The translations under genes and the position numbers were made by a program. The notes under the pieces were generated by a model, which did no database searches, was not told the DNA's origin, and saw nothing but the letters and a program-made list of their open reading frames with translations. Shown here in pieces: positions 39,598-56,430 of a DNA stretch of 64,000 nucleotides. The stretch comes from a virus. Position 1 is the first letter of the stretch. Each line of letters begins with the position of its first letter. The stretch is taken from positions 186,001 to 250,000 of IMG/VR virus record IMGVR_UViG_3300033145_003233; one strand, given 5' to 3'.

Positions 39598-40812
39598 TTA
39601 CAAATCATCAGCAAATCTAGTAGCCGCAGATGATGGTAAATATCCTAGTAAAACATTTGCCTTTGGTCTGAAAGCAGTAAACATTTTCCTACGAGAAAGT
39701 GAACTAAAATCATCAAGTGCTGCATGAAACTTATTTTTCCTCATTAAGAAAATATATTTTATTGACTCATTAAACTTCCTTTTACCAAAAGGTTGAGGAC
39801 GTTGAGCTAGATAAAGTCCTAACTCTTTATCAGACATATGTTCAGTAAGGTCATACATATCCTCTACCTCAGAAACAAATGACTCCAACTTTTGAGAAAG
39901 AATCCAAACGATAGTATCGAAGTCTTTTTCTAGTTCCTCAGGAAGTTCCTTTTTCACTTCGTCCAAATCGTCACCATTCAATAATAAATCCCAGATAGCT
40001 AATGGAGTTACCTTTGAAATCAGTTTATGGATACGAACATACTCTGCACCTTTTACCTTTATACGAACACCGCTCTCAAAACGGATAACATATCCTTCTT
40101 CATTTTGAGTTAGAGTCTCAGCCTTTTCCACAATAGATGTCATGTCGTCAAAATCATGCTTAGGCACAAATGCTACTCTTAACTTCTTGCTTGCCTCTAC
40201 TTGAAGATCTTCATAAGAGTACTCTACACCTTGAGGATCAAAAATAGCCAACAACACTAACCCTGAGAAATTGTAATTTACAACTATTTTATTCTCTGGA
40301 TAAATTATCTCGAACAGATAAGTGTTCTTTTTCCAAGCTGACCGAAGGACAACATGATTGCTGATTATCCATTCCTCAGCCCACTTAGCTTGTTCAGATG
40401 TAAAAGAGCCACACGTAGCAACTCTCCATGCTCCCTCGTAGTAGAACATGATTCCAAGAGAACCATCCATTTTTTCAGTAACAGTGAATTCTGATTCTAT
40501 AATAGATGCAGAACCTGATTCTATTTCACCGAAATTAAAAAACTTCATGAAAGGAGAAGCAACTACCACCTTATTTTTAAGGTCCAGAATTAGACCTCTT
40601 GACATTAGAGTAAAGACATTCCAGTTTCTTCCAGCAACACAGTCAATAGAATACTTGAACAAAGCCAAATGTGGAAAATCTGGATGGTAATTAACATTGA
40701 TATTTCCTCTGTTAATTTCCTCGAACAGTCCATCAACAAGGGCTTGAAACTCCATTACTCTAGATGGATGTTTCTTTCCATGTTTTAATAATATTTCCAT
40801 TACGTCATTCAT
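39598..40812 (-). CDS. T4 Rnl1-like RNA ligase (404 aa)
   Basis: EKMDGSLG at residues 113-120 contains the nucleotidyl lysine (K114) of motif I; MSRGLIL and KFFNFGE precede it as in T4 RnlA, EGYVIRF is motif IV and KVKGAEYV motif V. Length is close to T4 Rnl1 (374). The enzyme adenylates itself and seals single-stranded RNA breaks, in T4 those made in tRNA by host anticodon nucleases. It lies alone between two terminators. No polynucleotide kinase/phosphatase is visible nearby. Confidence 0.92.
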   Translation of the reverse strand: MNDVMEILLKHGKKHPSRVMEFQALVDGLFEEINRGNINVNYHPDFPHLALFKYSIDCVAGRNWNVFTLMSRGLILDLKNKVVVASPFMKFFNFGEIESGSASIIESEFTVTEKMDGSLGIMFYYEGAWRVATCGSFTSEQAKWAEEWIISNHVVLRSAWKKNTYLFEIIYPENKIVVNYNFSGLVLLAIFDPQGVEYSYEDLQVEASKKLRVAFVPKHDFDDMTSIVEKAETLTQNEEGYVIRFESGVRIKVKGAEYVRIHKLISKVTPLAIWDLLLNGDDLDEVKKELPEELEKDFDTIVWILSQKLESFVSEVEDMYDLTEHMSDKELGLYLAQRPQPFGKRKFNESIKYIFLMRKNKFHAALDDFSSLSRRKMFTAFRPKANVLLGYLPSSAATRFADDL

Positions 40813-40836
40813 AATAACACCTTAGAAAATACCAAT

Positions 40837-40866
40837 AAAAAAAGATGCGGTTAAAAAGCCGCATCT
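40837..40866 (-). terminator. Intrinsic terminator
   Basis: Minus strand GATGCGG, loop CTTTTTA, CCGCATC, then seven T. It ends the 40906-41235 unit and insulates the RNA ligase. Confidence 0.9.
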
Positions 40867-40905
40867 CTATCCTCTACTCCAGTGGGTTATAGGTTATAGC
40901 TTTTT

Positions 40906-41235
40906 CTATCTCGGGCTTCGACAGATATAGCGACATTTCTCTTTATAAACTTTCCAGAAAGACGTTCTATCCTTCCTGTTAAATTCACCCTTAACGAGAG
41001 CACGCTTAAAAGCGATTTTCCTGCCTATTACATCATTAGGCTGATCCTTGCAATGCTGCTTAGCTGTTCCCAACCCAACTGCATCAGTCACACGTCTGTT
41101 ATTATCTGGATCTAATGCATAAATGTTACAACTTATAATCGACACTTTTTTGCCATTTTCTCCAGGCCTCGCAGAAGCACAAAGCGAACGGCAGAAAGAA
41201 ACCGCATACGTCTTATTTCCAACATTGACCTTCAT
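40906..41235 (-). CDS. Phage hypothetical protein (109 aa)
   Basis: Contains VGLGTAKQHCKDQPNDVIGR followed by AFKRALVKGEFNRKDR and FWKVY, a pattern I associate with a small conserved phage family of unknown function. Several Cys. Under control of the box promoter at 41281-41323. Confidence 0.65.
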   Translation of the reverse strand: MKVNVGNKTYAVSFCRSLCASARPGENGKKVSIISCNIYALDPDNNRRVTDAVGLGTAKQHCKDQPNDVIGRKIAFKRALVKGEFNRKDRTSFWKVYKEKCRYICRSPR

Positions 41236-41280
41236 CTTACACTCCTTAAATTATTCTACATCATTATCAATTATTAACCA

Positions 41281-41323
41281 ATTATACTATGGCTGAGAAA
41301 AAACATTTGTCTGGAAAATTAAT
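41281..41323 (-). promoter_or_regulatory. Box promoter: TTAATTTTCCAGACAA plus TATAAT
   Basis: The box (41323-41307) ends in CCAGACAAAT, then 18 bases, then TATAAT (41286-41281). There is no TTGACA, so the box seems to take the place of the -35. ATG 41235 is about 45 bases after the -10. Confidence 0.72.
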
Positions 41324-41372
41324 TATTCCCAAAATACTACACCAACAAATCTACATTTATACTCTAAAAATC

Positions 41373-41963
41373 CTACCCTGCTACTTTAACAATATCGGTA
41401 TTATACTTGTCAAATAGAATTAAGGCTTCTTTATAATTTTCATAATAAGCCATTTCTTGAGGAGTATGACCGTTATTGTCTCTTTGGTCTCTGTATTCTT
41501 TTACTTTGATAAATCTCTTAACCAAACGGAGATTTCTCATTGCTATAGCTTCGTGGAGAGGAGTCCTGCCATATCGAGTAGAGAGTTTTTCTTTTCTTGC
41601 TTCTACTTCTTCTGGGGTATCAGGCTCTACAATACCTTTGTCTATTAGTTCTTGCTGTTTACGTTGAAGCCTTTCTTCAACCTCTATGAGGTACTGATTT
41701 CTCTTTCTCCCTTTGATCTCCGGATGTTGCTCATAATTCTTTTGATGGTGTAACGAAAGAATCTCTTTTATTTTTACAGATGGTTCTTTACTGCTGAAAA
41801 TTATATCCGCTTCCTGCTCTAACAAACTTCCATCATCCTCGTATTCTACTTCATCAAATATCCCCGCTCCCTCCAAATCTTCCATAATTTTATTAAGGTG
41901 TTCTCTTTTTATGTCGTTCCTTAATAAGATATGTAGCATCCTATTTTTTTCCCGTACAGACAT
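41373..41963 (-). CDS. Ankyrin-repeat protein (196 aa)
   Basis: Residues 130-190 hold two ankyrin repeats: YGRTPLHEAIAMRNLRLVKR and then DNNGHTPQEMAYYENYKEAL. The N-terminal 120 residues are charged and helical. Ankyrin repeats bind proteins, so a host target is plausible. Preceded by AATAGGAG, a good ribosome site. Confidence 0.8.
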   Translation of the reverse strand: MSVREKNRMLHILLRNDIKREHLNKIMEDLEGAGIFDEVEYEDDGSLLEQEADIIFSSKEPSVKIKEILSLHHQKNYEQHPEIKGRKRNQYLIEVEERLQRKQQELIDKGIVEPDTPEEVEARKEKLSTRYGRTPLHEAIAMRNLRLVKRFIKVKEYRDQRDNNGHTPQEMAYYENYKEALILFDKYNTDIVKVAG

Positions 41964-42021
41964 ACCAATTCTCCTATTAATAGGTCATTTATTAAATTCT
42001 TCAAAGAACCGTTATAACAAG

Positions 42022-42055
42022 ATAAGGGTAATGGGAATAATCCCATCACCCTTAT
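42022..42055. terminator. Long hairpin after TROVE gene
   Basis: AAGGGT-GA-TGGGA pairs with TCCCA-TT-ACCCTT with a two-base internal loop and a small apical loop. There is no strong T run on the minus strand. It may be a terminator or 3' end protecting stem. Confidence 0.6.
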
Positions 42056-42068
42056 TGAAAATATTAAC

Positions 42069-43823
42069 TTACAATTTTCCCGCAGCGAACTCAGAAAGAA
42101 TACGAGGCACATTAGAATCTAGCCCTGCTATGTCCATCATTCCTGCATCACTAGGATCAGCAATAGTGAACTTATTTGCTGCAAAAGCCATAACAACAAG
42201 TTTCGCATTCTTGTTAAACTTCTTTCTGTATCTCTTCAATGCCTCAAACGGATGCGCATATCCAGTATTTGTCTCATTATCTGTTAAAACAACAAACACA
42301 TCGACATCCATTTCGTTATCCATGGCATATTGCATAGGCAAAGAACAATCCGTACTACTAAACGGAAGATTAGAAGTCCTTCTGATAACAGTATCAAGAC
42401 TATCTTTCGCTGTGATATTCAACGGAACGAAAGTACGTGAGAAACCCATCATCGCATAATTCTTTTCCGTCCTAGCAATAGTCATAGCCACAACTGATGC
42501 TGCTTCACGAGGAACTATTCCGCTTGGATGATCAAAAGAACCCCAACCACTAGAAGCCATTGAAGCACTAACATCAATTCCTAACAAGAATTTCTTTCCT
42601 GTTGGTTCAACATAGTTGAACGCCTTATAAAAAGCCTCTTCCAAAGCATCTTTAATAGCAGACACAGGACTCCATGAAGTTCTCATACCACTACCCTTGC
42701 TATAAGTCTTAAGGGCCAACATAATCGTCATTGGATGGAGACGACTCTTCTTCAATGCTTCCTCATTTGTAATCTTACCAATAGCCAATGAAGTCTCATC
42801 ACTCAATGACTTCAAAAGTCCTGAAGAAGTCATTTGACCCAAGTTACGAATTAAAGCACCTATAGGCATCTTAGGAAGCAATGCTTTTTGTACCTTTTTT
42901 TCATTCCTGAATTGAGGAGGAATAGACTCTCTTGTTAGACCATAAGCTGTAACCAACTTCACCACTTCATTAATGTCAGTTGAGTTCATACTTTGCTCAT
43001 GTGCCCAAATATACTTCAGAGTTCCATCTTTCAATGCCTCTAGTTCAGAAACTAAAAGACCAGGACTTTCTTGAGTTTTTCCAGAAGCCTCAGAATCTTT
43101 TGCTCTCTTTACAAGAACCTCTTCGCTTGTTACTCCATGTGTCGCATAATGGAAAATAGTAGCATGCTCATCAGAAGGAGTAGTCAATGCCCTACCATTT
43201 CTAGCAGGCTTTCCATCAGCAGTAGGGCGAGAGATTCTGCACATACGAAGCAGATCCCCATGAGTCAACCTTTGCCCACCAACTGAACGACCAGGGTACT
43301 TGCAAATTTGATATGCTAATTTAACAGCATCTTTTTCAGTGTACCATCTTCCCATTGCTCTAAGCATACCCTTAGCCTTATGCCCTTCTTTCAATGAAAG
43401 AACAGCAAGCACCCACTCAAAAAGAGCAGTTGAAAAACGAGCAACCTTAGGCATCATCTTATTAGCGTATGCTCTTGTCTTGTCGTCTCCGTGAACACTG
43501 CAAACTGCCAATGCAAAAATAGCAGGAGCATTCTTAACAGCACGACCTTCATCGCTAATTTGAACGATAGTATCTACCGTACGCTTACTATCTAATTTCA
43601 GACAACGCAAAATGACATCATAGTTTTCCATAGTCAGTTCGCGAGCTGAAGCATAATAAGTGCCATTCTCATTCCCTATAATTAAGAAACGATTTAGCCT
43701 CGTCCAGTCATCAGCCGTAAACACAAAACCACCTGAACGGTTTTCGACTTGCGTACTCTTAGCTCTTTTTCTTTGGTTAGTTTGAGGGTTTGCTACAATA
43801 TTAGCATAATTTTTCTCAGCCAT
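42069..43823 (-). CDS. rsr: Ro60/TROVE-vWA RNA-binding protein (584 aa)
   Basis: The N-terminal 390 residues match the TROVE ring of helices (DDWTRLNRFLIIGNENGTYY, CLKLDSKRTVDTIVQISDEG, HLKL-type and EEVLVKR segments), which binds Y RNAs and misfolded RNA. The C-terminal vWA-like domain has an intact MIDAS: D-x-S-x-S (DVSASMAS), a Thr in SSTDCS and Asp in LTDNETN. Bacterial homologues (Rsr) work with Y RNAs in rRNA and tRNA processing. It has its own consensus promoter at 43888-43915. A phage-encoded copy is unusual but the family is clear. Confidence 0.92.
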   Translation of the reverse strand: MAEKNYANIVANPQTNQRKRAKSTQVENRSGGFVFTADDWTRLNRFLIIGNENGTYYASARELTMENYDVILRCLKLDSKRTVDTIVQISDEGRAVKNAPAIFALAVCSVHGDDKTRAYANKMMPKVARFSTALFEWVLAVLSLKEGHKAKGMLRAMGRWYTEKDAVKLAYQICKYPGRSVGGQRLTHGDLLRMCRISRPTADGKPARNGRALTTPSDEHATIFHYATHGVTSEEVLVKRAKDSEASGKTQESPGLLVSELEALKDGTLKYIWAHEQSMNSTDINEVVKLVTAYGLTRESIPPQFRNEKKVQKALLPKMPIGALIRNLGQMTSSGLLKSLSDETSLAIGKITNEEALKKSRLHPMTIMLALKTYSKGSGMRTSWSPVSAIKDALEEAFYKAFNYVEPTGKKFLLGIDVSASMASSGWGSFDHPSGIVPREAASVVAMTIARTEKNYAMMGFSRTFVPLNITAKDSLDTVIRRTSNLPFSSTDCSLPMQYAMDNEMDVDVFVVLTDNETNTGYAHPFEALKRYRKKFNKNAKLVVMAFAANKFTIADPSDAGMMDIAGLDSNVPRILSEFAAGKL

Positions 43824-43887
43824 TTCTTTCTCCTTTTTCTTATCAACCTAATTTAATTTTAGATATATCGATATCAACACATTAGCA

Positions 43888-43915
43888 ATTATACAATTTT
43901 CTACTTTTTTGTCAA
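43888..43915 (-). promoter_or_regulatory. Sigma70 promoter of TROVE gene
   Basis: Minus strand TTGACA (43915-43910), 16 bases, TATAAT (43893-43888), both perfect. Start near 43881, about 58 bases before ATG 43823, with AGGAGAAAG as ribosome site. Confidence 0.87.
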
Positions 43916-44069
43916 GTAGAAAGTTCATTTTATTTTGAAAAAACTTAAAAAATCCTCTATTTTCTTCATAATTTTTTATAACCCCCTATCAAATAAGGAG
44001 TTAAGAAATCAACTTTTTTTACACTATTTTCATATATCGGCTAAAAAACTTTAAAACTTTAATCTTTTT
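43916..44069. other. AT-rich region between TROVE promoter and AAA gene
   Basis: I see a weak hairpin (AACTCC/GGGGGTT, minus strand near 43985-44010) that may end the AAA unit, and a 14-codon frame of no clear meaning. No Y-RNA-like or tRNA-like fold is seen here. Confidence 0.35.
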
Positions 44070-45719
44070 TTACTCTCTTTTTCCAAATCCGAAAGCAGAA
44101 CTAGTTTCTCCAACTCCGAATTTCTCCATAGTTTCTATGATCTCATCGGCCCATTTAATATCAATTCTTTTGACTTTTCTTCGACTACTGATATGCTTAA
44201 GATTCAAGCTATTAATAAATTCCTGAGCCTCAGCCCCTGTCCATCCATCAGTTTTAGAAACAATATGATCCAATGTCTTTTTATTTGTTTTCCATTGTTT
44301 TAATCTGTCTTTAAACATCCTTTGCCTAAGTTCTTCACAAAGAGCAGGCACTTCCACTACTCTATCAAAACGACCTGGCCTGTTCTTCAAGGCACTCTCA
44401 ATAATTCTTAATCTATTAGTCGTCCCTATGGTAACAGAATTTTTAATAGAATTCACTCCATCAAGAATATTCATCAATGCACCGAGAGAAATCACATCTC
44501 CACCCTTCTCTCTATCTTGACTAAACAAGTCTAAATCCTCTAAGATTATGATACAAGGAGACAAGAAATCTGCTAGCTTATATAAGGCCTTAATAGAAGT
44601 TATAGCTTTATAATTATTCTCTGCTAATATCTCAGGAGTAATCCATATAACAGTATAATCAGGAACTAGATTACAAATGATATTACCTATAGTGGTCTTA
44701 CCAGTCCCTGCTCTCCCGTGTAAAATTATTCCTCTTTTAGTTATTCCGCAAGCATTGTATTTTTTAACATTTTTAACAAAACCAAAAATCTCTAAATCAA
44801 AGAGATCTTTAATACTCTCTGGATAATAATAATTGTCCCATGTATATGAATCTTTGATCTCTACCTCTGAGAAAGATGCTGATATCATATTAACATCTTT
44901 TAATTTTGCTCCTCTTAGACAATTATGTTTTTTAGCAAACTCTTGCAAATCATTAATAATATTTTTTGAGCAACCCGTATCAGTACTAAAACATGTTATA
45001 GAAGCTCCTCCTCGTTCCCCATCAAAATACAAGAAAAAAGCTACATTTTCTTGTTTCTTCCCCTTCACCTTTTCAAAATATAAAAATCCCGTAGTGGTAA
45101 ATGTGGTTTCTTTACCTTTAACACTCCATGGATTCTTTTCTGGAGGAATAGAATTACCATGATCATCAAAATTCAATTCTCCTGCAAAGCTAAAACCCTC
45201 TTCCTCCATAAATTTAACCATACACTCCATTAAAATCAAAGTGATAAGAGGATGTGCTTGATAGGGATGATTTTTAATATCATTAACACTTGTAACTCCT
45301 AGAAATCTACAAAGAATTCTATAATCAATAGAACGAATAAAATCTATTTTAATCTGATCTGCAAATTTAACCGCTACTAACTCTTTATATCTTTGTTCTG
45401 CTATATCCTCTGCTATAGATTGAAGAGGACGTGGAACACCTCCACTTATAGTCGCTGTTTGAGTCTCAAACATGCGATCATCGCACGGAACAGGCATACA
45501 TTCATCACCATCATCATCAAAATTTAACTCTTCAATTACTTGTTTTACTATTTCTGTTGAAGTTGAAGCACGATGTACCGGGCTTTTTACAATAGATTGA
45601 TCTTTAATCATACGAGTATTACCTTCCATTAATATAAGTTTTTCATAATCTTCCTCCCGGATATCAAAAAATCTACACCAGAATGCTTTTAATTCTCTTT
45701 GTACCTTATTTCTTTTCAC
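44070..45719 (-). CDS. AAA ATPase, BCS1/FtsH-like (549 aa)
   Basis: Walker A GRAGTGKTT (residues 335-343), Walker B CIIILEDLDLF (389-399), sensor 1 GTTNRL and the Arg-finger region NRPGRFDRV define an AAA ATPase of the BCS1 or 26S type. The N-terminal 320 residues are unfamiliar and contain two acidic FDDDG/FDDHG repeats. The start is a GTG. It lies between the TROVE gene and a queuosine-salvage-like gene. Unfoldase or complex-assembly role is likely. Confidence 0.88.
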   Translation of the reverse strand: MKRNKVQRELKAFWCRFFDIREEDYEKLILMEGNTRMIKDQSIVKSPVHRASTSTEIVKQVIEELNFDDDGDECMPVPCDDRMFETQTATISGGVPRPLQSIAEDIAEQRYKELVAVKFADQIKIDFIRSIDYRILCRFLGVTSVNDIKNHPYQAHPLITLILMECMVKFMEEEGFSFAGELNFDDHGNSIPPEKNPWSVKGKETTFTTTGFLYFEKVKGKKQENVAFFLYFDGERGGASITCFSTDTGCSKNIINDLQEFAKKHNCLRGAKLKDVNMISASFSEVEIKDSYTWDNYYYPESIKDLFDLEIFGFVKNVKKYNACGITKRGIILHGRAGTGKTTIGNIICNLVPDYTVIWITPEILAENNYKAITSIKALYKLADFLSPCIIILEDLDLFSQDREKGGDVISLGALMNILDGVNSIKNSVTIGTTNRLRIIESALKNRPGRFDRVVEVPALCEELRQRMFKDRLKQWKTNKKTLDHIVSKTDGWTGAEAQEFINSLNLKHISSRRKVKRIDIKWADEIIETMEKFGVGETSSAFGFGKRE

Positions 45720-45737
45720 TTTTCAACTATAAAAATT

Positions 45738-46721
45738 TTAATAATCACTAGTAGCGGTTAAGTGAAAAGCTCCTTCACAATCTTTCCTTCTTAACCACAA
45801 GTAAGTATCTACATCACACATACTACAACCTGCTAATTCAGCTATTTCCTTACAAACCATAATAGAAGTCGCTCTTATCTCACATTCTTCCAATGACCCG
45901 CGAGGAATCAATTCGTTATTAGATATTTTTGCTTGGAGAAGAGGAGAGTAATAGAGACAACCCAAGTGGGATAGCATTTTCGGTATTTGGTAATCAGCGG
46001 GGACAGGGACTTTTTCTATTTCATCTTTAAACCATTGAACTCTTCTATATAGCATCATAACTAATAGAAATATCCTTTTAAGAAACATATCTTCTCCATA
46101 ACCAGGATAGGTTGTAATAATAAGTTGGATAAATTTTTCTACGCCTATTTTCCCCGACTTTATTTTATCCACTACTGTTTCCGAAGTTTCTTCTATTCTC
46201 CAAGAATGTCTAAGAGATTTATAACCATAGCAACCCATTCCCGCTGCTATTTCTCGAAGATGTCTAATTCTATCAGTTAAATTGGGGAATCTATACAAAG
46301 TCAACTTGCTTACAAAATTACCAATTACATCTTGGCAAAGATTAGGAAGACGATCATGCCCAAATATTTCGGATCTTTCTTCTGCAAAAGCTTGATCCAG
46401 CAATTCATACATCAATGTTGCCCCAGCATTATTGGGCCTACAATCATGAACACCATACCAATATTGATAGTTAATAGAGCCAGCTATCAACTCATAAAGA
46501 AACAACTCTTGATCTAAGCGATTCTCCTTGGGGGGAGTTTCTCTATCAGAAGAAATAAGACACTTTGGATATCCAAGCCAAAAATCCTTACCGTCCTTTA
46601 ATCCTTCTTTAATTAAAGCTGCTGTTTCTGTTATCCCTTTACAAGTCATCCAAACATGAGAAGGATTCTTTGTAAATTTCTCAGAAAGTTCCATTACTCC
46701 ACTAATTAATTTATTCTTCAT
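45738..46721 (-). CDS. Queuosine-salvage (DUF2419/QNG1)-like protein (327 aa)
   Basis: ATG 46721 follows GGAGAAAGGTG. The middle NYQYWYGVHDCRPNNAGATL and the C-terminus (ADYQIPKMLSHLGCLYYSPL, GSLEECEIRATSIMVCKEIA, CDVDTYLWLRR, HLTATSDY) follow the order of DUF2419: DYRVPQ-x-L, GS-x-E-x-EIRA, D-x-LW, H-x-T-x-x-Y. Those enzymes hydrolyse queuosine 5'-phosphate to free queuine for tRNA. Related viral glycosylase-like families act on modified bases, so the substrate is uncertain. Confidence 0.62.
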   Translation of the reverse strand: MKNKLISGVMELSEKFTKNPSHVWMTCKGITETAALIKEGLKDGKDFWLGYPKCLISSDRETPPKENRLDQELFLYELIAGSINYQYWYGVHDCRPNNAGATLMYELLDQAFAEERSEIFGHDRLPNLCQDVIGNFVSKLTLYRFPNLTDRIRHLREIAAGMGCYGYKSLRHSWRIEETSETVVDKIKSGKIGVEKFIQLIITTYPGYGEDMFLKRIFLLVMMLYRRVQWFKDEIEKVPVPADYQIPKMLSHLGCLYYSPLLQAKISNNELIPRGSLEECEIRATSIMVCKEIAELAGCSMCDVDTYLWLRRKDCEGAFHLTATSDY

Positions 46722-47079
46722 CACCTTTCTCCTTAATTTTTATTCCGCATTCTTTACATTGATCCCATAAAAGGCTCATCCCAAAAGCCATTTCAGGAGA
46801 GGGAATTAATTCCACCACTTCTTGTTTCCCTGTTTTTTGATTTATTTTTACCCTTGCAATAATAACAGAATCATCACTATTACTATCGAAATCTCCCCAC
46901 CCAAGATAACTACAATACCCATCTGCTTGTTTAGGCCAGTCTTCTCTTACGCTCCAATAAGGACAAGGACGATATTCTTCATCATTAGGTGCTCTACTCC
47001 CAAAATAACAATATTGCCCAGACGGTATCTTAGGATAAGCTTTAAGAAACTTTATAAATTTACGTAGTTGTTTTAGCAG
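46711..47079 (-). CDS. Hypothetical protein with non-ATG start (about 122 aa)
   Basis: An open frame of more than 120 codons without any early ATG fills the gap between its neighbours. A CTG at 47079 has AGGA about eight bases upstream and overlaps the end of the upstream gene by 20 bases. The product has PSGQYCYFG, YRPCPYWS, SYLGWGDFD and a CKECG end. The coding character is good; the start codon is uncertain. Confidence 0.6.
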   Translation of the reverse strand: MLKQLRKFIKFLKAYPKIPSGQYCYFGSRAPNDEEYRPCPYWSVREDWPKQADGYCSYLGWGDFDSNSDDSVIIARVKINQKTGKQEVVELIPSPEMAFGMSLLWDQCKECGIKIKEKGDEE

Positions 47080-47957: not shown

Positions 47958-47958
47958 T

Positions 47959-48307: not shown

Positions 48308-49252
48308 TTACAAAAGATAATAAGCCGAAGATTTTAGATCTTCTATCTTATTCCCACCAATGTAGGAAATAGCACTTTGCAAATCCTCTTTTAATTCTCC
48401 CATTAACCTCTCCATATTCCCCCTAAATTTAATCAAAATTTTCTTTCCCTCTATATTGTTGTATTCTTGTTTGTTATATTTAGAAGCACTACCATAATAT
48501 TCCTTGTACATATTATCTTCTATTTCAATTATATTCCCAGCGGATTGCTCATATCCTGCGAATAAAGATCCAGCCATAACCATATCTGCACCGCAAGCAA
48601 GGGCTTTTGCTATATCCCCATGTTCAACCACCCCTCCATCAGCTATAATAATAACTTTCTCTCTAGCCCTTACACAATCTAATATTGTACTGACCATTGG
48701 ACGATGCACACCTGTTTTATTCTTTGTAATACAAACGCTTCCTCCAGCAATCCCGCATTTAATAGCATCTACACCCCACCCCTCAATCTCTTTCACAGCA
48801 TCTCCTGTAGCCACATTACCAATAATTAAGAAAGTTTCCGGAAAGTTGTCTTTAATAAAAGTTGTCATCTGTCTAGCTTCATCTGACCACGCATTGGCAA
48901 CATCTATAGTAATATAATCAGGTATTTGGTTGTCTTTTAATAGCCCTTCTAATTGATTTTTAGATCCCCAACTAATACCTACACTTACAGAAGTTAAATA
49001 TTCATGCTGTTTCATAGTAGTTATAAAAAATCCATAATTTACATCGAAACGATGCATTGTATAAAACCAGTTGTGTTTAGCAAAAAATTGACAAGTTTTC
49101 ATATCTACAACGCTCTTCATATTAGCAGGATATATAGGCATATTAAAAATATGCTTACCAAGTTGAACAGAAGTATCTATATGACCACGACTACTCACGA
49201 TGCATTTCTTGGGTATTAATGATATATCAGAATAACTTAATTGTTTTTCCAT
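48308..49252 (-). CDS. GMP reductase / IMP dehydrogenase family enzyme
   Basis: A (beta/alpha)8 barrel with D-x-x-L-IP (SDISLIPKKC), MKSV, DVANAW, KCGIAGGSVC (catalytic C174 with ITKNKTGV loop), IADGGVVEHGDIAKALACGA and MAGSLFAGYEQS. GMP reductase makes IMP from GMP; the length (314) and lack of CBS domains favour it over IMP dehydrogenase. A phage copy could reroute guanine nucleotides. It shares an overlap of 16 bases with the HNH gene. Confidence 0.88.
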   Translation of the reverse strand: MEKQLSYSDISLIPKKCIVSSRGHIDTSVQLGKHIFNMPIYPANMKSVVDMKTCQFFAKHNWFYTMHRFDVNYGFFITTMKQHEYLTSVSVGISWGSKNQLEGLLKDNQIPDYITIDVANAWSDEARQMTTFIKDNFPETFLIIGNVATGDAVKEIEGWGVDAIKCGIAGGSVCITKNKTGVHRPMVSTILDCVRAREKVIIIADGGVVEHGDIAKALACGADMVMAGSLFAGYEQSAGNIIEIEDNMYKEYYGSASKYNKQEYNNIEGKKILIKFRGNMERLMGELKEDLQSAISYIGGNKIEDLKSSAYYLL

Positions 49253-49920: not shown

Positions 49921-49993
49921 TTTGATCTCCCCATATAAACAATTCGTATATATATAGTTCTATCAAACCTGCTTTAATCCTTTTTCTACATTC

Positions 49994-50218: not shown

Positions 50219-51075
50219 TCATACACTTCCCCGGTCCACACCATATACTCCCTTTCATCGACAGGGAGCTTAAAACTATAAAATAATTCTTTTAAACATT
50301 TTTCACATATATCAAAGAGATAGGCAGTACAATCAGAAAGAATGGGAGAATGATAAAAGCCTTTTGCCTGAGCACCTATAAGACCATAAAAACTTTCTGG
50401 TCCCTCATGCTCTATTGCCATAGAACATGATTCTCCGCACATATTGCACAAACATGTTTTATGTATTTCATGTGGTATTTTCTCCGCTATCTCATCGTCC
50501 CATTTAGACACTTTAGTTTTTAAAGTTGCTATATATGGCAAATCTCTTAATTCTCCATCTAGGTCTAAACCACCCCCAACTAAGAAATCTTTAGTTGTAA
50601 CCTTATGACCTACAAATAGTGGCTGCATCTTATAAGCATGCTCTATCTCCCTCTCTAGCATCACACAATATTCTATAGTTAATGGAGATAACTGTTCAAC
50701 AATGCCATGAAGTATATATAAGGTTTTACCCGTATCATAAATATCATCGATAATTAGAACATGCTTACCTGCAATTGTCTTTTTTATATAATCTGACAAT
50801 TCTACATCAACCACTCCAGTAGATTTTGTTCCTTCATAACTACTAGCTTTAACATGGTGAGTACTAGAATTAGCATGAAACTTTGGTGGTAATTTAATTT
50901 CTACATCTCTTGCGAAACGGATAGCTCCTTCTCTTATCACAAGAATCACCACTTGATCTCCCCCACCCTTCACATTTGGATAATGAGCAACTATTTCATT
51001 TGCAATAGTGGATGAGATTCTTGTTAGGTCATTACTATGAAGTATAACATCTTTAATAACATTTAGTCTTTGCAT
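50215..51075 (-). CDS. Phosphoribosyltransferase with C-terminal zinc region (286 aa)
   Basis: VLIIDDIYDTGKTLYIL (residues 106-122) is the PRPP-binding loop of type I phosphoribosyltransferases, with VVILVIREGAIRFA as the first strand loop as in hypoxanthine/xanthine enzymes. The extra 95 residues have CLCNMCGESC and CEKC motifs. Substrate may be a purine or deazapurine base. Together with the GMP reductase it suggests purine recycling. Confidence 0.85.
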   Translation of the reverse strand: MQRLNVIKDVILHSNDLTRISSTIANEIVAHYPNVKGGGDQVVILVIREGAIRFARDVEIKLPPKFHANSSTHHVKASSYEGTKSTGVVDVELSDYIKKTIAGKHVLIIDDIYDTGKTLYILHGIVEQLSPLTIEYCVMLEREIEHAYKMQPLFVGHKVTTKDFLVGGGLDLDGELRDLPYIATLKTKVSKWDDEIAEKIPHEIHKTCLCNMCGESCSMAIEHEGPESFYGLIGAQAKGFYHSPILSDCTAYLFDICEKCLKELFYSFKLPVDEREYMVWTGEVYE

Positions 51076-51076
51076 T

Positions 51077-51811
51077 TTACCCCCAATAAGTATAAATCAT
51101 AGGTCTTAGTTCTTGGATTGTCTTATAAAAATCTTTAAAAATATCTAGCCAATAAATATGTAATACAATTGAACCGGCAATTACAGGACGATAATATGTT
51201 TTATAATAATCCAATTTATCTCCTGATAATAAGGGTGGAGTCTTTTCTGTCCATATTCCTATTGCCATGTTATACTCCCCTCCATTCATGTAATCAGGAT
51301 ACCCTTCTTTTCCATATTTTGGACTACCTGGAATATGAATTATTCCCTGATAAGGCCATATACCACATCTATGAGTCAAATCCTTAACGCTATCCTGAGA
51401 TTCATCGCATTCATAATAGTCCATGATATCATCATACCTACCCCAGTCCTGATGAGTTAAATGACGAAACATCATAACATTGGACATCCCATATTCTCCA
51501 CGAACAACAGGTCTTATAAATTTGGACTTATCTATTTTCCCATCTTCTATCTTTCCAAAAATAAAAGTCATGTCCAATGAGCTAGAAGATCTACCTTCTT
51601 CTCTCCCATCAACCTTATCAACTATATTTTTACATTCTTCTTTATTATTTTGAACCCAGTTTATAAAACCTTCAAAGTCTCCCTCCTTCTTGTAAAAAAT
51701 ACTTGGCTTAAATGCTTCCACATTTAACCTATGGTCAATAGGAATATCCTTCTCATCACACTTAATATCTGTTAATCCCCATCCTATTACTTTATGAATT
51801 CTTGTTCCCAC
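51077..51811 (-). CDS. Hypothetical phage protein (244 aa)
   Basis: Starts MGTRIHKVIGWGLTDIK and has many aromatic residues and a DYYECDESQD segment. I do not recognise a fold. One base from the PRTase gene. Confidence 0.68.
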   Translation of the reverse strand: MGTRIHKVIGWGLTDIKCDEKDIPIDHRLNVEAFKPSIFYKKEGDFEGFINWVQNNKEECKNIVDKVDGREEGRSSSSLDMTFIFGKIEDGKIDKSKFIRPVVRGEYGMSNVMMFRHLTHQDWGRYDDIMDYYECDESQDSVKDLTHRCGIWPYQGIIHIPGSPKYGKEGYPDYMNGGEYNMAIGIWTEKTPPLLSGDKLDYYKTYYRPVIAGSIVLHIYWLDIFKDFYKTIQELRPMIYTYWG

Positions 51812-51815
51812 TTAA

Positions 51816-52811
51816 CTACTCCTTACTTTCTTTTTGGGGTTCAGGATGATCTCTCATCTCTTCAAAAGCCCACCTTATTTGATGAAAGGCAGATTCTACC
51901 CATGGATAAAGACCTATATAAGAATCACCGCGACCAAATTCTTCCCACTTAGCTATAAATCCCCCGTCCCTACTATCTTGATATGTTGTTTTAAAATTAG
52001 TTTTTTTATACCACCTCAAATCTGGTCTGTGTGGGCCGTATTTTTGCCCCGGCAAATTATCACTGAAATTTTCGACTAACCATCGTGCATGCAAAATTGC
52101 CATTCTCTTCCCTCTCTTTTTAAACTCCCTTTCTTCTTGTTTGTCCCATTTGTCTTCTGGCTTTAGGTATCTATCCCAATATCGATAAATATACCAGTTA
52201 GGAGGAGTTTTTTCTAACCCCGGAGTTACATAGAATTTCTTTACCACTATATAGTTAAGACTTTGTGATTCCAGAGCAAAGACATGAAGATTCTGTACTA
52301 ACTCAGGGTAATTTTTGCAAACTACCTTTTTGGAGGGAAGATAAAAGATATGATTATCCATATCATTATATTCATATTGATTATTCTCGGTATATTTATA
52401 TTCTACCAATTTTTGATAAATAAAATCCATGTCCTCAAAATTCTCTTCAAATTCCTCTGCCACAAAGTTTTCACAAACCCACTCTAAATAAAGTTGCCCT
52501 ATCCATCTATCTTTCTCTCCAAAATCAAAGTACTTAAGAGCTTTTGCTATGATCTTAGGAGCACTTATGCTACTCCCACCACTCTCCTCTTGTGCTTCTG
52601 GATAATATCTTTTGCACCATCTTAAAAGAGCTTTCGTGGCTTTTGCTTCATGTATCCTTTCTCTCTCCAAATAATCCATTCCCATTATCTTTTCTATTTC
52701 TGTTTTTTGCTTTTTAGTTAGCTTTTTCTTTTTAGGGACTTTCTTTTTCCCTTTCCTCCATGCCACCATCTTATTCTTTGCTTTCTTTACTTTCTTTTTT
52801 TTCTTTGTCAT
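51816..52811 (-). CDS. Hypothetical protein with Lys-rich start (331 aa)
   Basis: ATG 52811 has AGGTG six bases upstream. Residues 1-40 are nearly all Lys, Ala and Arg (TKKKKKVKKAKNK), the rest acidic and aromatic. The basic start suggests nucleic-acid binding. No family recognised. Confidence 0.68.
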   Translation of the reverse strand: MTKKKKKVKKAKNKMVAWRKGKKKVPKKKKLTKKQKTEIEKIMGMDYLERERIHEAKATKALLRWCKRYYPEAQEESGGSSISAPKIIAKALKYFDFGEKDRWIGQLYLEWVCENFVAEEFEENFEDMDFIYQKLVEYKYTENNQYEYNDMDNHIFYLPSKKVVCKNYPELVQNLHVFALESQSLNYIVVKKFYVTPGLEKTPPNWYIYRYWDRYLKPEDKWDKQEEREFKKRGKRMAILHARWLVENFSDNLPGQKYGPHRPDLRWYKKTNFKTTYQDSRDGGFIAKWEEFGRGDSYIGLYPWVESAFHQIRWAFEEMRDHPEPQKESKE

Positions 52812-52820
52812 ATTATTCAC

Positions 52821-54128
52821 CTAATTATCTAATGATTTTCTAAAAATATTACTCCATGCCTTCCGAGACAAATAATCATAAAATCCTGACAAGGGAAGCC
52901 TTACCAGAATAAATAGAAAATATCTCAGTATGGGAAATTCAACAACCAACATAGCTAAAGCATACAATCTACCTATTAATTTGTAATCAGAGGTATAGGG
53001 ATAATTGATTTTAAACCTATTAAAAGTAGAACTTAATATAGAAGATTTAACATTGTCATCAAAAAATGCCGCTCCTGGGTATGGCTGAAAAACAGTAAAT
53101 TTACCAACATCAGGTTTTAATTTAAGAATCATATCAATAGTTTCTAGTGATTCTTTGTACGTCTCAGAAGGAGATCCGAACATAGCATATGTATGAAACT
53201 TAATCCCACACTTTTTAACTAACTCTATTTTCTTATAAATAAAATCATTCGTTAAGTTCTTACCTAATATCGAATTACGTATATGCTCATTACCACTTTC
53301 TACACCTATCCCTATTTGATAACATCCAGTTTCTACTAATTTTGCTAACAACTCCTCCGTGATAATTTCAAATCTAAGATGACACCAATATGGCAAATCT
53401 ACTTCTTCTGAATATCTATCCAAGAATTCTGAAGTCCACTTTTTGTTGGCCCCAAATGTTTCATCAAAAAATTCTATCCTTTTAGCATTCCCTTTGTAGG
53501 TATTTATTTCTTCAAAAATATCATCCATGTCCCTGAGTCTATAATATTTATTATTAAAAAGACTGTTTATTCCCTTGTTTGTACAAAAATTACAATTGTA
53601 GGGACATCCTCTAGCACAAGATATATATAAAGAATCTTCTAAAACAGTTTTATAATTATTATAAATTCTTCTGGAAGGGATTGGTATCTCATTACTTGGC
53701 AATAATTCTCCCAACTCATTCCTTTGCCCTTTTGTCCATAAAGATGGAATATTAAATGTGGATATATTTTCATCAATATTATTTAATAAAGTTAAAAGGG
53801 GTTTCTCTCCTTCTCCCATACAAATCATATCAATATTCTCATCAAAAACAATGTCAGGGTACGATGTGGGATGAGGCCCACCTACAACAGTCACAATCTT
53901 ATTATTTATACCTTTAACTTTTTTAACCATGTCCAAAAGCCAGCAATGATTAAGTGTAAGAGAATAAATCCCTATTACATGAGGATCAAAAGACTGAATC
54001 TTATAAGGCAACTTCCCATGACCGTCCATAAAAACATCACATTCATGTTTATCTTCGATATAAGAAGTCAATGTCATAATACTCAACCATCTTATACTAT
54101 CATTCTGAAGGAATAGAATCCTTGCCAT
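52821..54128 (-). CDS. B12-binding-domain radical SAM protein (435 aa)
   Basis: The N-terminal 130 residues read like a cobalamin-binding Rossmann domain (FDPHVIGIYSLTLNH, VVGGPHPTSYP, DMICMGEGE) and residues near 171-180 hold CPYNCNFC, the radical SAM cluster motif. RIEFFDETFG, IGVESG and FGSPSET follow as in BchE-type enzymes. The C-terminus has a hydrophobic segment that may bind membrane. Substrate unknown; such enzymes methylate or rearrange lipids, tetrapyrroles or peptides. Confidence 0.88.
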   Translation of the reverse strand: MARILFLQNDSIRWLSIMTLTSYIEDKHECDVFMDGHGKLPYKIQSFDPHVIGIYSLTLNHCWLLDMVKKVKGINNKIVTVVGGPHPTSYPDIVFDENIDMICMGEGEKPLLTLLNNIDENISTFNIPSLWTKGQRNELGELLPSNEIPIPSRRIYNNYKTVLEDSLYISCARGCPYNCNFCTNKGINSLFNNKYYRLRDMDDIFEEINTYKGNAKRIEFFDETFGANKKWTSEFLDRYSEEVDLPYWCHLRFEIITEELLAKLVETGCYQIGIGVESGNEHIRNSILGKNLTNDFIYKKIELVKKCGIKFHTYAMFGSPSETYKESLETIDMILKLKPDVGKFTVFQPYPGAAFFDDNVKSSILSSTFNRFKINYPYTSDYKLIGRLYALAMLVVEFPILRYFLFILVRLPLSGFYDYLSRKAWSNIFRKSLDN

Positions 54129-54573
54129 TTTTATTATCCTTCTCCCCCGTAACGCTCTTAGTCCTCTCCTCCAGAGTTTCCCATACTTCTAATGCAGCTT
54201 TTAAATAAGTTCCTACATAACCCACATAGCTTTGCACAAACTGTTTTAACGTTCTTCTTCTACCTTGCTCCATCCCTAGTTGGACTGCTAATCCTATTAT
54301 TTCTTCATAAACATCTCTTCCTTGATCTTCTTTAGAATAAGTCAGATGCCAAGCATCTAAAGTTTCGCTAGGATGTATATTAGCACATCTCTCAGTTTTT
54401 CCCCTATCTAAACCTTCCCATTCAATCCCTTCTTCATAAACCTTATCTCCCTTTTCCATAGCAGTTCTCAAAGCTTTTAGAAGAGGATCTGTAACATCAT
54501 TAAACATAACTGGCTCTCCATCTGAGGGCCATGGCTTATTGTTTCCTTCTTTAAAAGGCTCTTTTGTATTCAT
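54100..54573 (-). CDS. Hypothetical protein (157 aa)
   Basis: ATG 54573 (MNTKEPFKEG) overlaps the upstream stop by ATGA and is preferred over a longer frame. Helical, with DAWHLTYSKEDQG and a polar tail. Overlaps the radical SAM gene by 29 bases. Unknown function. Confidence 0.65.
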   Translation of the reverse strand: MNTKEPFKEGNNKPWPSDGEPVMFNDVTDPLLKALRTAMEKGDKVYEEGIEWEGLDRGKTERCANIHPSETLDAWHLTYSKEDQGRDVYEEIIGLAVQLGMEQGRRRTLKQFVQSYVGYVGTYLKAALEVWETLEERTKSVTGEKDNKNGKDSIPSE

Positions 54574-54785
54574 TCTGAAAATCCCCTTGCCTGAGAGTAG
54601 AGAGGGGCCAGTAGAGCCATGCCATCTATTAACCCAGACATGTACCCTCTTATATAATCCTCTCCCCCGCATTTTTCTGGATTGTTTTTTAAATTTTTCT
54701 CTGCTGCTTTATATTTCTTTTCTAATCGCTCATAATCCCTTTTCCGTTCTTCTGTTCTTTTATCTATTGCAGAATTTTCACTCAT
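54570..54785 (-). CDS. Small helical protein (71 aa)
   Basis: Charged coiled coil in residues 1-35, then a Gly-rich helix (YIRGYMSGLIDGMALLAPLY). ATGA junctions at both ends. Unknown function. Confidence 0.62.
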   Translation of the reverse strand: MSENSAIDKRTEERKRDYERLEKKYKAAEKNLKNNPEKCGGEDYIRGYMSGLIDGMALLAPLYSQARGFSE

Positions 54786-55117
54786 TTAATCTCCCCTTCC
54801 ATATCTAACATATCAAAGCGATTAGACTGAGACTCATCAGAAGATACTTCAACAACCTCTCCTTGCTCTGGCTCCTGTGATCCCCCAAATACAACATCAG
54901 TCACTTCTACCTTAAAAATTTTCATAATAGATGAAACGATTCTTAGACACAATAACATAGAAGCGAACACAGGCCAGAAAGCAATCAATAACATACCATT
55001 ATCATCAACTGAGAAAACTTGATTAGTAACCCTATAATAAAGAGCTACCACAATAATCCCCAATAGGAAATATAACACAGCCCCCGCTGCTAAAATCAAT
55101 TCTAGCCCCATCCCCAT
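54782..55117 (-). CDS. Two-helix membrane protein with acidic tail (111 aa)
   Basis: Helices at about residues 3-27 and 44-66; the tail is acidic (EPEQGEVVEVSSDE). Unknown function. Confidence 0.65.
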   Translation of the reverse strand: MGMGLELILAAGAVLYFLLGIIVVALYYRVTNQVFSVDDNGMLLIAFWPVFASMLLCLRIVSSIMKIFKVEVTDVVFGGSQEPEQGEVVEVSSDESQSNRFDMLDMEGEIK

Positions 55118-55133
55118 ATCCTCTTAAATCTAA

Positions 55134-55331
55134 CTATCCAAATGGACAGTCGCAATGATCATCTACTGTGCCACAATCTGGACAAATTTTCTTACTTTCT
55201 AACATCCTAAGATATTTCTCACTATCTCTCTTGTAAGCTGTTCTATCTTTACGTAGATTTATTATCTCTCCGTCTCGTACTTTGAGAATCTTAATTAAAT
55301 CTTCTTTAGTTCTACCTATATCATATTCCAT
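55134..55331 (-). CDS. Small coiled-coil zinc protein (65 aa)
   Basis: Charged helix (residues 5-45) then CPDCGTVDDHCDCPFG, a short zinc-binding end. Starts right after the RNA ligase stop. Unknown function. Confidence 0.65.
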   Translation of the reverse strand: MEYDIGRTKEDLIKILKVRDGEIINLRKDRTAYKRDSEKYLRMLESKKICPDCGTVDDHCDCPFG

Positions 55332-55332
55332 A

Positions 55333-56430
55333 TTATTCGTCAGAGAAGTCTACTACTTCCCCCTTCGCCTCTTTTTTATTCTTCATAAGAAGATAATCTT
55401 CATTAAGCATTTTTAGAATAGCCCTACCGCAAGACCATTCTTCTCTTTCTTTTAGAGAGCAAATAACTATACCTTCTCTAATATGGTCAGCACCATTTCT
55501 TTTAGCGAGAAAAGAAGGGCCTGTAGAAAGGCCTTTCATCAAATTCATATTAAATGACCCCTCGATAATAAGAGGAACCATAGGGACAGAAAAAGCCTTA
55601 CATAGATTATTAAATAGTTCCCAATCAACATACTTACCATCTATCTTCAATGAAAATGCCACAAAGTTAAGAGAATTAGGTTTTCCATAATGCATAGATT
55701 TATGTCCACCTCTTACTCTTCCATACACTTCTCCGTATAGAGTAGCACTTTTCTTGCAGCCATAACGAGGATCATTACCTAAAGCCGAAAGAAGATATTT
55801 AACTGACTCAAGAGTAAAGGGATACCAGTAGCTATTAGAAAGCATTTCTTCATCTGTAGGCATTTTTCTCTTAACCCTATGAGAACCACCTTTCCACTCT
55901 AGTTCTCCTTCCTCAGATTTGAAGAAGCCTATCCTACAATTAGTCCCATCTATTTTTTCTGTAACACAAACTTCCTCTCCCTTTTCAAAAATATCAGGGA
56001 AATTTCTGATATTCTCTATGTCTGTATATTTAGTAAACAGAGGGTCATCGGGAGCAGCATCTCCAGCCATAGCTCTTAGAGGTGGTTCGTATTTAGTAAT
56101 TCCATAATGTTCAGCTACATCTGTCCCTACTTCCCAATTTTCTTCGTTATTTATAATCAGTCCGTAAGACATCGCCCCACGAAGTCTGGCACACCTAACG
56201 CGATTGTGAAGTTTACCTCCGAGATAGTTACCCACTCCAAGTCTCTCTACAAGTTCGAGAGGAAGCACAGCATCAACAGGGATATAAACAACAATATCTC
56301 CTACTTTATAATCTCCCTTGCCAACTATGCACTCCCATCCCTTGACAACGGCAATTTCTAGCCTGTCAGCATTCTCGTGCGAGAGAACTTCTTTTATATC
56401 ACAAACTTCTACTATTAAACTACTGCTCAT
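55333..56430 (-). CDS. RNA ligase, DRB0094/Rnl5-like (365 aa)
   Basis: ATG 56430 has AGGA six bases upstream. The N-terminal 110 residues (VEVCDIKEVLSHENADRLEI, WECIVGKGDYKVGDIVVYIP) match the OB-like module of the Deinococcus RNA ligase clade; VTEKIDGTNCRIGF holds the nucleotidyl lysine (about K159), and LYGEVYG and EGIVI correspond to later motifs. Enzymes of this clade seal nicks in duplex RNA. It is a second, distinct ligase besides 39598-40812. Confidence 0.88.
   Translation of the reverse strand: MSSSLIVEVCDIKEVLSHENADRLEIAVVKGWECIVGKGDYKVGDIVVYIPVDAVLPLELVERLGVGNYLGGKLHNRVRCARLRGAMSYGLIINNEENWEVGTDVAEHYGITKYEPPLRAMAGDAAPDDPLFTKYTDIENIRNFPDIFEKGEEVCVTEKIDGTNCRIGFFKSEEGELEWKGGSHRVKRKMPTDEEMLSNSYWYPFTLESVKYLLSALGNDPRYGCKKSATLYGEVYGRVRGGHKSMHYGKPNSLNFVAFSLKIDGKYVDWELFNNLCKAFSVPMVPLIIEGSFNMNLMKGLSTGPSFLAKRNGADHIREGIVICSLKEREEWSCGRAILKMLNEDYLLMKNKKEAKGEVVDFSDE

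What the first reader, a model, noticed from the sequence alone, without database searches (positions are those of the whole stretch)
39598..56430. RNA maintenance island: Ro60 protein, two RNA ligases, queuosine-salvage-like enzyme
Within 17 kb lie a T4 Rnl1-like ligase, a DRB0094-type ligase, a complete TROVE-vWA protein, a DUF2419-like protein and an AAA ATPase; a metallophosphoesterase is just outside at 38.1 kb. Ro60 with RNA repair enzymes is known in bacteria, but I know of no described phage that combines these. Together they may repair or sequester tRNAs cut by host anticodon nucleases.
Basis: partly seen in the sequence, partly recalled or inferred. Interest (0 to 1): 0.8.

Follow-up and report, generated by a model that had tools for sequence, protein, structure and literature searches.

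The report
Giant-phage tRNA repair and salvage cluster
A giant bacterial virus carries, not far from its own tRNA genes, a conserved cluster encoding a Ro60-type RNA-holding protein, RNA-sealing enzymes and an enzyme of a family that recovers a rare tRNA base; this suggests that it maintains its tRNAs during infection.

Summary
All five named genes are present on the minus strand with intact signature motifs: Rnl1-like ligase, complete TROVE-vWA (Ro60) protein, AAA ATPase, queuosine-salvage (Qng1/DUF2419) homologue and DRB0094-type ligase. The window lies in a 547,943-b virus record with a tRNA array 40 kb away (27 ARAGORN tRNAs) and an RlaP RNA-repair gene elsewhere. Six other viral contigs keep the AAA-TROVE core. 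The block from metallophosphoesterase to Q-salvage is kept far better than the rest of the window in the two long relatives compared. Q-salvage is in 5 of 7 contigs; both residues mutated in solved Qng1 structures (K199, D231) are invariant in 13 of 13 aligned phage sequences. What I did not find described is a phage Qng1-type nucleosidase (nine further contigs have one, mostly beside nucleotide-metabolism or helicase genes) and its linkage to an AAA-Ro60 pair. Best reading: a phage tRNA maintenance module, with Q salvage linked by location only. No function was tested. New variant of a known kind.

The parts
38120..38773 (-). metallophosphoesterase, calcineurin-like, 217 aa; candidate RNA-end or nucleotide phosphatase
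   Evidence: Pfam Metallophos 2.8e-12; PADLOC candidate PDC-S10 2.5e-68; DxH, GD, GNH, GHxH motifs present; kept in G001, G002, G003 and L028
39037..39537 (-). conserved protein of unknown function, 166 aa
   Evidence: no Pfam or PHROG match; 43-62% identical in G001, G002, L029, L028; also in L003
39598..40812 (-). Rnl1-like ATP-dependent RNA ligase, 404 aa
   Evidence: Pfam PF09511 1.1e-18; PHROG 562 1.4e-57; KMDGS at 114, FEIIY at 167, EGYV at 239, KVKG at 252; T4 Rnl1 2c5u 1.1e-13
40906..41235 (-). small conserved protein, 109 aa
   Evidence: weak matches in L002, L005, L003, L029
41373..41963 (-). ankyrin-like protein directly downstream of the Ro60 gene, 196 aa
   Evidence: Ank_2 1.6e-5, just below cut-off; kept in G001, G002, L003, L028, L029
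42069..43823 (-). complete TROVE-vWA (Ro60/Rsr-type) RNA-binding protein, 584 aa
   Evidence: TROVE and vWA_Ro60; Ro60 1yvp 1.9e-107, Rsr 2nvo 7.4e-78; MIDAS DVSAS at 417
43842..43868 (-). leader hairpin motif before the Ro60 start codon (weak evidence of structure)
   Evidence: 36 of 36 cells paired in 6 leaders, but only 1 of 6 pairs varies on both sides; 95 of 500 shuffles do as well
43888..43915 (-). sigma-70-type promoter TTGACA-16-TATAAT upstream of the Ro60 gene
   Evidence: only 12-of-12 match in 37500-57400; TTGACN-16-TATAAT at the same place in L002, L005, L012, L023 and L029, not L003
44070..45719 (-). AAA ATPase with a conserved N-terminal region, 549 aa, next to the Ro60 gene
   Evidence: AAA 1.8e-16; Walker A GRAGTGKTT, Walker B IIILEDLD; 56-66% identity to five relatives
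45738..46724 (-). Qng1/DUF2419-type queuosine-salvage nucleosidase homologue, 328 aa
   Evidence: PF10343 8e-19; model pLDDT 81.7, the 11 PDB matches with E up to 0.001 are all DUF2419; K216 and D244 (Qng1 K199, D231) invariant in 13 of 13 aligned
48308..49252 (-). GMP reductase, 314 aa; purine interconversion
   Evidence: NF003966 396 bits, cut-off 344; also in G002, L029 and L023
50215..51075 (-). HGPRT-like phosphoribosyltransferase, 286 aa
   Evidence: TIGR01203 1.3e-26, below its cut-off; Pribosyltran 3.6e-11
52821..54128 (-). B12-binding radical SAM protein, not seen in the compared relatives; probably not part of the module
   Evidence: Radical_SAM 8.8e-18, B12-binding 9.7e-12; no match in the G001, G002, L029, L028 stretches
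55333..56448 (-). DRB0094-type (Rnl5) RNA ligase with N-terminal OB-fold, 371 aa
   Evidence: TIGR02306 173.5 bits, cut-off 151.15; KIDGT at 165, GEVYG at 239, EGIV at 325; also in L012 and, in two ORFs, L029

Best explanation
A tRNA maintenance module of a clade of giant phages. SHOWN by sequence: the long contigs carry about 30 tRNAs each, a Ro60-type RNA-holding protein with an AAA ATPase next to it, ATP-dependent RNA ligases (RtcB as well in one relative), a metallophosphoesterase, and at a distance the RlaP nucleotidyltransferase; most also carry a Qng1-type nucleosidase homologue with intact catalytic residues. INFERRED: host tRNases cut tRNAs during infection; Ro60 holds broken or misfolded tRNAs; the AAA ATPase loads, unloads or remodels the Ro60 complex; the phosphoesterase and RlaP restore ends or lost nucleotides; the Rnl1-like and DRB0094-type ligases reseal. 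INFERRED with less confidence: the Qng1-type enzyme frees queuine (or a related base) from queuosine 5'-monophosphate of degraded tRNAs so that a host transglycosylase can put the base back, which would suit a phage with 83-87% NAU codons and its own His, Asp and Asn GUN tRNAs.
For: Domains and motifs. Gene order kept in related contigs; block kept better than its surroundings. tRNA arrays on the same strand as the block in G000, G001 and G002, 38-43 kb from it. ATP-grasp ligase in 6 of 7 contigs; RlaP in 4 of 7, which are the four contigs over 200 kb; RtcB in G003, where no Rnl1-like gene was seen. Qng1 fold and catalytic residues. NAU is 83-87% of NAY codons against 69-71% for the U-ending Phe and Cys codons; the phage His, Asp and Asn tRNAs show T-G-T at 33-35 on reading the sequences. 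In described phages Comrade, LinStu, Pumpernickel and Sixama the Ro gene lies among or near tRNA genes. Precedents: the rsr-yrlBA-rtcBA operon answers to cut tRNAs (PMC7790460, passages); AriB leaves 5'-phosphate and 3'-OH ends, the kind ATP-grasp ligases use (PMC12409363 and PMC7824862, passages).
Against: No host, transcript or assay is known. No Y RNA or other Rfam family was found in the window. No PNKP phosphatase domain in 7 of 7 contigs (no control genome passed that model's cut-off, so sensitivity is unknown), so how 2',3'-cyclic-phosphate ends would be healed is open. No TGT-family gene in 4 of 4 records, and the bacterial TGT studied in PMC3660597 binds queuine but does not use it (abstract). 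Q_salvage is absent from G005 and from the G006 fragment, and in other phages it has other neighbours. Contigs of one phage clade share backbone by descent, so order alone is weak proof of joint function. PHROG 562 names Rnl1-like proteins also as tail-fibre attachment catalysts.
Confidence: 0.5

Rival explanations
1. Nucleotide scavenging. Ro60 feeds structured host RNA to a nuclease, as Deinococcus Rsr does with PNPase; the Qng1-type glycosidase, the HGPRT-like enzyme and GMP reductase then recycle bases and purine nucleotides for phage DNA synthesis. The ligases are a separate matter.
For: GMP reductase and HGPRT-like genes lie within 4 kb of Q_salvage and recur in G002, L029 and L023. A nucleoside hydrolase gene overlaps the Q_salvage gene in L003. 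Q_salvage lies next to or one gene away from ribonucleotide reductase in L019 and L020 and near IMPDH-like ORFs in L017 and L018. Rsr-PNPase in Deinococcus: PMC7790460 (passage).
Against: G001 and L012/L028 keep Q_salvage with the core but show no GMP reductase or HGPRT-like gene in the stretches compared. The tRNA arrays, RlaP and two ligases are not explained. The best-kept neighbours are RNA proteins, not purine enzymes.
Confidence: 0.25
2. No single module. Independently useful genes sit in a stable region and are kept together because the phages are related; the Rnl1-like protein may serve tail-fibre attachment as T4 gp63 does (recalled).
For: PHROG 562 name. Part of the surrounding order is also kept, for example the methylase at 35429-36511 and the gene at 56420-57193. 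The DRB0094-type ligase is not near the block in G001 or G002.
Against: The block is kept far better than the rest of the window: ORFs with at least 40% identity over 70% of length are 7 and 7 of 8 inside, 8 and 6 of 66 outside. RtcB is present where no Rnl1-like gene was seen.
Confidence: 0.2
3. The Qng1-type enzyme makes free queuine, which blocks host TGT and leaves host GUN tRNAs unmodified, changing decoding or sensitivity to tRNases that read the wobble base.
For: Queuine is bound but not used by a bacterial TGT (PMC3660597, abstract). Colicin E5 action is tied to the wobble modification (PMC10264068 and PMC12409363, passages). The phages carry no TGT themselves.
Against: TGT inhibition would hit phage GUN tRNAs as well, and NAU-rich phage genes should suffer. 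No direct evidence.
Confidence: 0.05

Closest known systems
Jumbo-phage RNA repair systems (PMC7824862; passages read)
   Same: tRNA arrays, Rnl1-type and other ATP-grasp ligases, RlaP, and in a small subset a TROVE protein
   Different: in that paper queuosine is not named and queuine only for DNA modification; the AAA-TROVE-ankyrin-ligase-phosphoesterase order with a Qng1 homologue does not appear in the passages read
Bacterial rsr-yrlBA-rtcBA RNA repair operon (PMC7790460; passages read)
   Same: Ro60 protein linked to RNA ligation and tRNA breakage
   Different: no Y RNA found; RtcA and RtcR not searched for; ATP-grasp ligases instead of RtcB, except that G003 has both kinds
T4 Pnkp/Rnl1 tRNA repair against PrrC (recalled; restated in PMC10264068 passages)
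   Same: Rnl1-like ligase and phage tRNAs
   Different: no PNKP phosphatase domain found; extra Ro60, AAA, DRB0094-type ligase, RlaP and Q salvage
Qng1/DUF2419 queuosine 5'-monophosphate nucleosidase (PDB 7u07, 7u91, 7ulc, 7ugk)
   Same: fold and the K199 and D231 equivalents
   Different: 18-22% identical in the structure alignments; encoded by phages; no phage TGT found to use the product
Borg elements of Methanoperedens archaea (PMC11208441; passages read)
   Same: RNA ligase and a TROVE-domain protein among conserved genes, plus tRNAs
   Different: archaeal element; ligase and TROVE in different clusters; queuosine not named

Membership tests
Ro60/Rsr (TROVE-vWA) | complete TROVE plus vWA domain with MIDAS | tested here: met
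   both Pfam domains over cut-off; DVSAS at 417, TDC at 491, TDNET at 514
Ro60/Rsr (TROVE-vWA) | NCBIfam Rsr equivalog cut-off | tested here: not met
   385 bits, cut-off 900; a Ro60 homologue, not the named bacterial equivalog
Ro60/Rsr (TROVE-vWA) | Y RNA partner nearby | tested here: inconclusive
   no Rfam match at gathering score in the window nor a credible one at E up to 5 in 37-58 kb; an undescribed Y-like RNA is not excluded
T4 Rnl1 RNA ligase | nucleotidyltransferase motifs I, III, IV, V | tested here: met
   all four in the window protein; PF09511 over cut-off
T4 Rnl1 RNA ligase | T4 RnlA equivalog cut-off (TIGR02308) | tested here: not met
   66.9 bits, cut-off 242.25; hence 'Rnl1-like'
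DRB0094-type (Rnl5) ligase | equivalog cut-off, N-terminal OB-fold, ligase motifs | tested here: met
   TIGR02306 173.5, cut-off 151.15; PHA02142 OB-fold; KIDGT, GEVYG, EGIV
Qng1/DUF2419 queuosine salvage | family profile and fold | tested here: met
   PF10343 68.7 bits, cut-off 25; Foldseek 7u07 E 2.8e-10, TM 0.68
Qng1/DUF2419 queuosine salvage | catalytic K199 and D231 | tested here: met
   K216 and D244, invariant in 13 of 13 aligned sequences; the two PDB mutants are named
Qng1/DUF2419 queuosine salvage | activity on queuosine 5'-monophosphate | not testable with these tools
   needs an enzyme assay; residues that contact the base were not compared
rsr-yrlBA-rtcBA operon | RtcB beside Ro60 | tested here: not met
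   no RtcB in the window's record; in 1 of 4 records in all
Phage tRNA repair system | tRNAs, ATP-grasp ligase and RlaP in one phage | tested here: met
Phage tRNA repair system | 5'-kinase/3'-phosphatase (PNKP) for end healing | tested here: inconclusive
   PF25109 in 0 of 7 contigs, but no control genome over its cut-off; kinase domain not searched
7-deazaguanine DNA modification | TGT/DpdA-type transglycosylase | tested here: inconclusive
   PF01702 in 0 of 4 records, 14 of 14 controls ring; divergent phage DpdA may escape this model

The most novel reading that the evidence does not exclude
The phages carry a closed wobble-base repair cycle: Ro60 with its own AAA ATPase holds tRNAs from which host nucleases have cut out the wobble nucleotide, RlaP and the ligases refill and reseal them, and a phage-specific Qng1-type nucleosidase recovers the queuine of the excised nucleotide for re-insertion. 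This would link Ro60 ribonucleoproteins with queuosine recycling and be a viral use of Q salvage.
Probability: 0.1. Interest if true: 0.85.

Novelty: new variant of a known kind. Interest (0 to 1): 0.58.

Why it matters
Phage-coded tRNAs are thought to outlast host tRNases, and RNA ligases to repair what is cut. This clade adds two things: an AAA ATPase kept beside Ro60 (a possible remodeller of Ro60 complexes, whose bacterial function is still poorly known) and a phage family of Qng1-type nucleosidases. It makes two questions directly testable: what Ro60 holds during infection, and whether a virus salvages queuine.

Tried and rejected
Y RNA search: Rfam at gathering score and at E up to 5 gave nothing credible; the gaps upstream and downstream of the Ro60 gene were read and the leaders folded, without a Y-like RNA. 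The leader hairpin was tested for covariation: 1 of 6 pairs varies on both sides and 95 of 500 shuffles do as well, so I do not claim a structured RNA. 7-deazaguanine DNA modification was set aside for lack of a TGT-family gene, with the reservation given. The AAA structure prediction failed (mean pLDDT 46.4) and was not used. Two genome-contig scans, with the Q and the AAA alignments, found no cellular relative; such pattern scans reach only sequences that keep the short patterns. The Qng1 structure paper is not held, so the catalytic residues come from PDB titles and alignments. The host was not identified. The two ligases are not close paralogues (E 0.095).

Rows not settled: regular expressions did not find motif III in the L029 Rnl1-like protein, motif I in either L029 DRB0094-type piece, or DxHG in the L028 phosphoesterase; I did not inspect these further. 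L016 was left out of the Q alignment because its neighbourhood is the same as that of L015. Neighbourhoods come from a simple ORF caller of mine, so small genes may be missed or miscalled.


Full report
WHAT IS THERE. The window is bases 186001-250000 of a 547,943-b virus record. No tRNA lies in the window, but the record has 27 RF00005 matches, 25 of them at 171.7-183.5 kb just left of the window, on the minus strand like the island. ARAGORN finds 27 tRNA genes in 166-186 kb, for 19 amino acids (no Tyr), including His GTG, Asp GTC and Asn GTT, and two more at 65-69 kb. The named genes are real and over Pfam cut-offs: metallophosphoesterase, Rnl1-like ligase, TROVE-vWA protein, AAA ATPase, Q_salvage and RNA_ligase with OB-fold; an ankyrin-like gene stands next to the Ro60 gene. 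The second ligase passes the DRB0094 equivalog cut-off; the first does not pass the T4 RnlA one, and the Ro protein does not pass the bacterial Rsr one. A GMP reductase (passes its cut-off) and an HGPRT-like gene (does not) also lie in the island. Signature motifs are present in the window's phosphoesterase, ligases, Ro60 and AAA proteins.

THE QUEUOSINE-SALVAGE GENE. The protein matches only DUF2419 structures in the PDB, by sequence (five distinct sequences at E up to 0.01) and by fold (model pLDDT 81.7; the 11 matches with E up to 0.001 are all DUF2419). PDB titles name the mutants D231N and K199C of the solved enzyme; in the profile alignment these positions fall on D244 and K216 of the window protein, invariant in 13 of 13 aligned phage sequences, the window's included. 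tblastn finds no match in 50,697 named phage records at E 1e-5; scanning viral contigs finds 13 loci. Four of these carry the island (L002, L013, L003, L012). Nine do not: near the gene stand ribonucleotide reductase (L019, L020), helicases (L014, L022), IMPDH-like ORFs (L017, L018), a radical SAM gene (L015, and L016 with the same neighbourhood), or nothing that I examined (L021). L014 also has a protein with a sub-cut-off match to the OB-fold of such ligases. The catalytic residues are kept, but the gene is not confined to RNA repair.

CONSERVATION. With the window, seven contigs carry the core: the window, L002/L004 (G001), L005/L013 (G002), L003 (G003), L012/L028 (G004), L029 (G005) and L023 (G006, a 16-kb fragment ending inside TROVE). 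AAA is followed by TROVE in 7 of 7, and TROVE by the ankyrin-like gene in 6 of 6 that reach so far (in L029 after one more ORF). The Rnl1-like gene follows in 5 of 6; in L003 none was seen, and that contig has RtcB, split by a LAGLIDADG ORF. Q_salvage is in 5 of 7. ATP-grasp ligases are in 6 of 7 and RlaP in 4 of 7, the four contigs over 200 kb. G001 and G002 have tRNA arrays (34 and 30 matches over cut-off), the G003 fragment none. As a control against shared descent alone, all window ORFs of 100 aa or more were compared with 80 kb of G001 and of G002: inside 38120-46724, 7 of 8 and 8 of 8 have a match, outside 20 of 66 and 19 of 66; with at least 40% identity over 70% of length, 7 and 7 of 8 inside, 8 and 6 of 66 outside. 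Genes moved beyond the 80-kb stretches would be missed. Homing-endonuclease-type ORFs interrupt or adjoin the AAA gene (L029), RtcB (L003) and the Rnl1-like gene (L002).

EXPRESSION SIGNALS. The only perfect sigma-70-type promoter in 37500-57400 ends 65 bases upstream of the Ro60 start codon, and TTGACN-16-TATAAT recurs there in 5 of 6 relatives. This suggests transcription by host polymerase, perhaps early (inference). A leader motif recurs exactly in four relatives and in altered form in L012; its hairpin is not well supported.

HOW IT MAY WORK. The pieces fit a tRNA maintenance module (see best explanation). The steps of Ro60 holding, AAA remodelling, end repair, sealing and base salvage are all inferred. 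The phage uses NAU for 83-87% of Asn, Asp, His and Tyr codons (29 window genes), codons thought to profit from queuosine (recalled). The module could act without PNKP on cuts that leave 5'-phosphate and 3'-OH, as AriB does (PMC12409363, passages). Against it: no TGT (0 of 4), no PNKP phosphatase (0 of 7), no Y RNA, and queuine is not a substrate of the bacterial TGT studied in PMC3660597 (abstract). The rivals are nucleotide scavenging, unlinked genes, and TGT inhibition. The boldest reading, recovery of the excised wobble base, leans on RloC, a tRNase that excises the wobble nucleotide (PMC2610378, abstract start in the listing), and on the proposal that RlaP restores such lost nucleotides (PMC7824862, passage).

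WHAT IS KNOWN. The passages of the jumbo-phage review PMC7824862 already describe TROVE proteins in a small subset of phages, several ligase families, RlaP and tRNAs as counter-defence. Ro-like proteins match in 340 of 50,697 named phage records; of 7 such records that I chose from the 40 listed, 2 have an RNA_ligase match at E 0.001, Phosso and Comrade. In four of these seven the Ro gene stands among or near tRNA genes. Searches for phage queuosine salvage listed no paper whose title or abstract start names a phage Qng1/DUF2419 enzyme; the full texts were not read, and subscription journals are largely not held. Huge phages with QueC/D/F synthesis genes are described (PMC7162821, passages). 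The novelty is therefore that of a variant: a known kind of module with a new enzyme family and a conserved AAA-Ro60 pair.

Noticed in passing
window 63552-64000; full gene in L047:252-1337 (minus strand; G000 249552-250637): A 361-aa ionotropic-glutamate-receptor-type channel: SBP_bac_3, Ion_trans_2 and Lig_chan domains over cut-off, a TVGYGDY potassium-filter sequence (recalled motif), best PDB match a bacterial iGluR homologue (2pyy, 1.5e-32); 77% and 74% identical over the window part in G001 and G002; the only match in the phage collection is one partial hit. One paper search listed no phage-coded one.
   Followed up: partly
L014-L022: Wider phage family of Qng1-type nucleosidases without the RNA repair island, beside ribonucleotide reductase, helicases or IMPDH-like genes.
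   Followed up: partly
L003:4291-6422: RtcB gene in two ORFs separated by a LAGLIDADG ORF (intein, intron or free-standing insertion not decided).
   Followed up: partly
L029:6828-9785: AAA gene in two pieces separated by a NUMOD3 ORF.
   Followed up: partly
L005:14664-15452 and L004:16803-17585: ADP-ribosylglycohydrolase between the 39037-type gene and the metallophosphoesterase in two relatives, not at this place in the window.
   Followed up: partly
window 43842-43915: Perfect sigma-70-type promoter and a recurrent leader motif (TATCTAAA..TTAGGTTGAT) just upstream of the Ro60 gene.
   Followed up: yes
window 10467-12947: Two adjacent radical SAM/SPASM genes, not seen in the G001 or G002 stretches.
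   Followed up: no
window 32795-34138: DndB-like protein (PF14072, 29.9 bits, cut-off 29.1), 40-41% identical in both long relatives.
   Followed up: no
window 61215-62864: 549-aa protein with putative Ig domains, a dockerin-like stretch and a calcineurin-type phosphoesterase domain.
   Followed up: no
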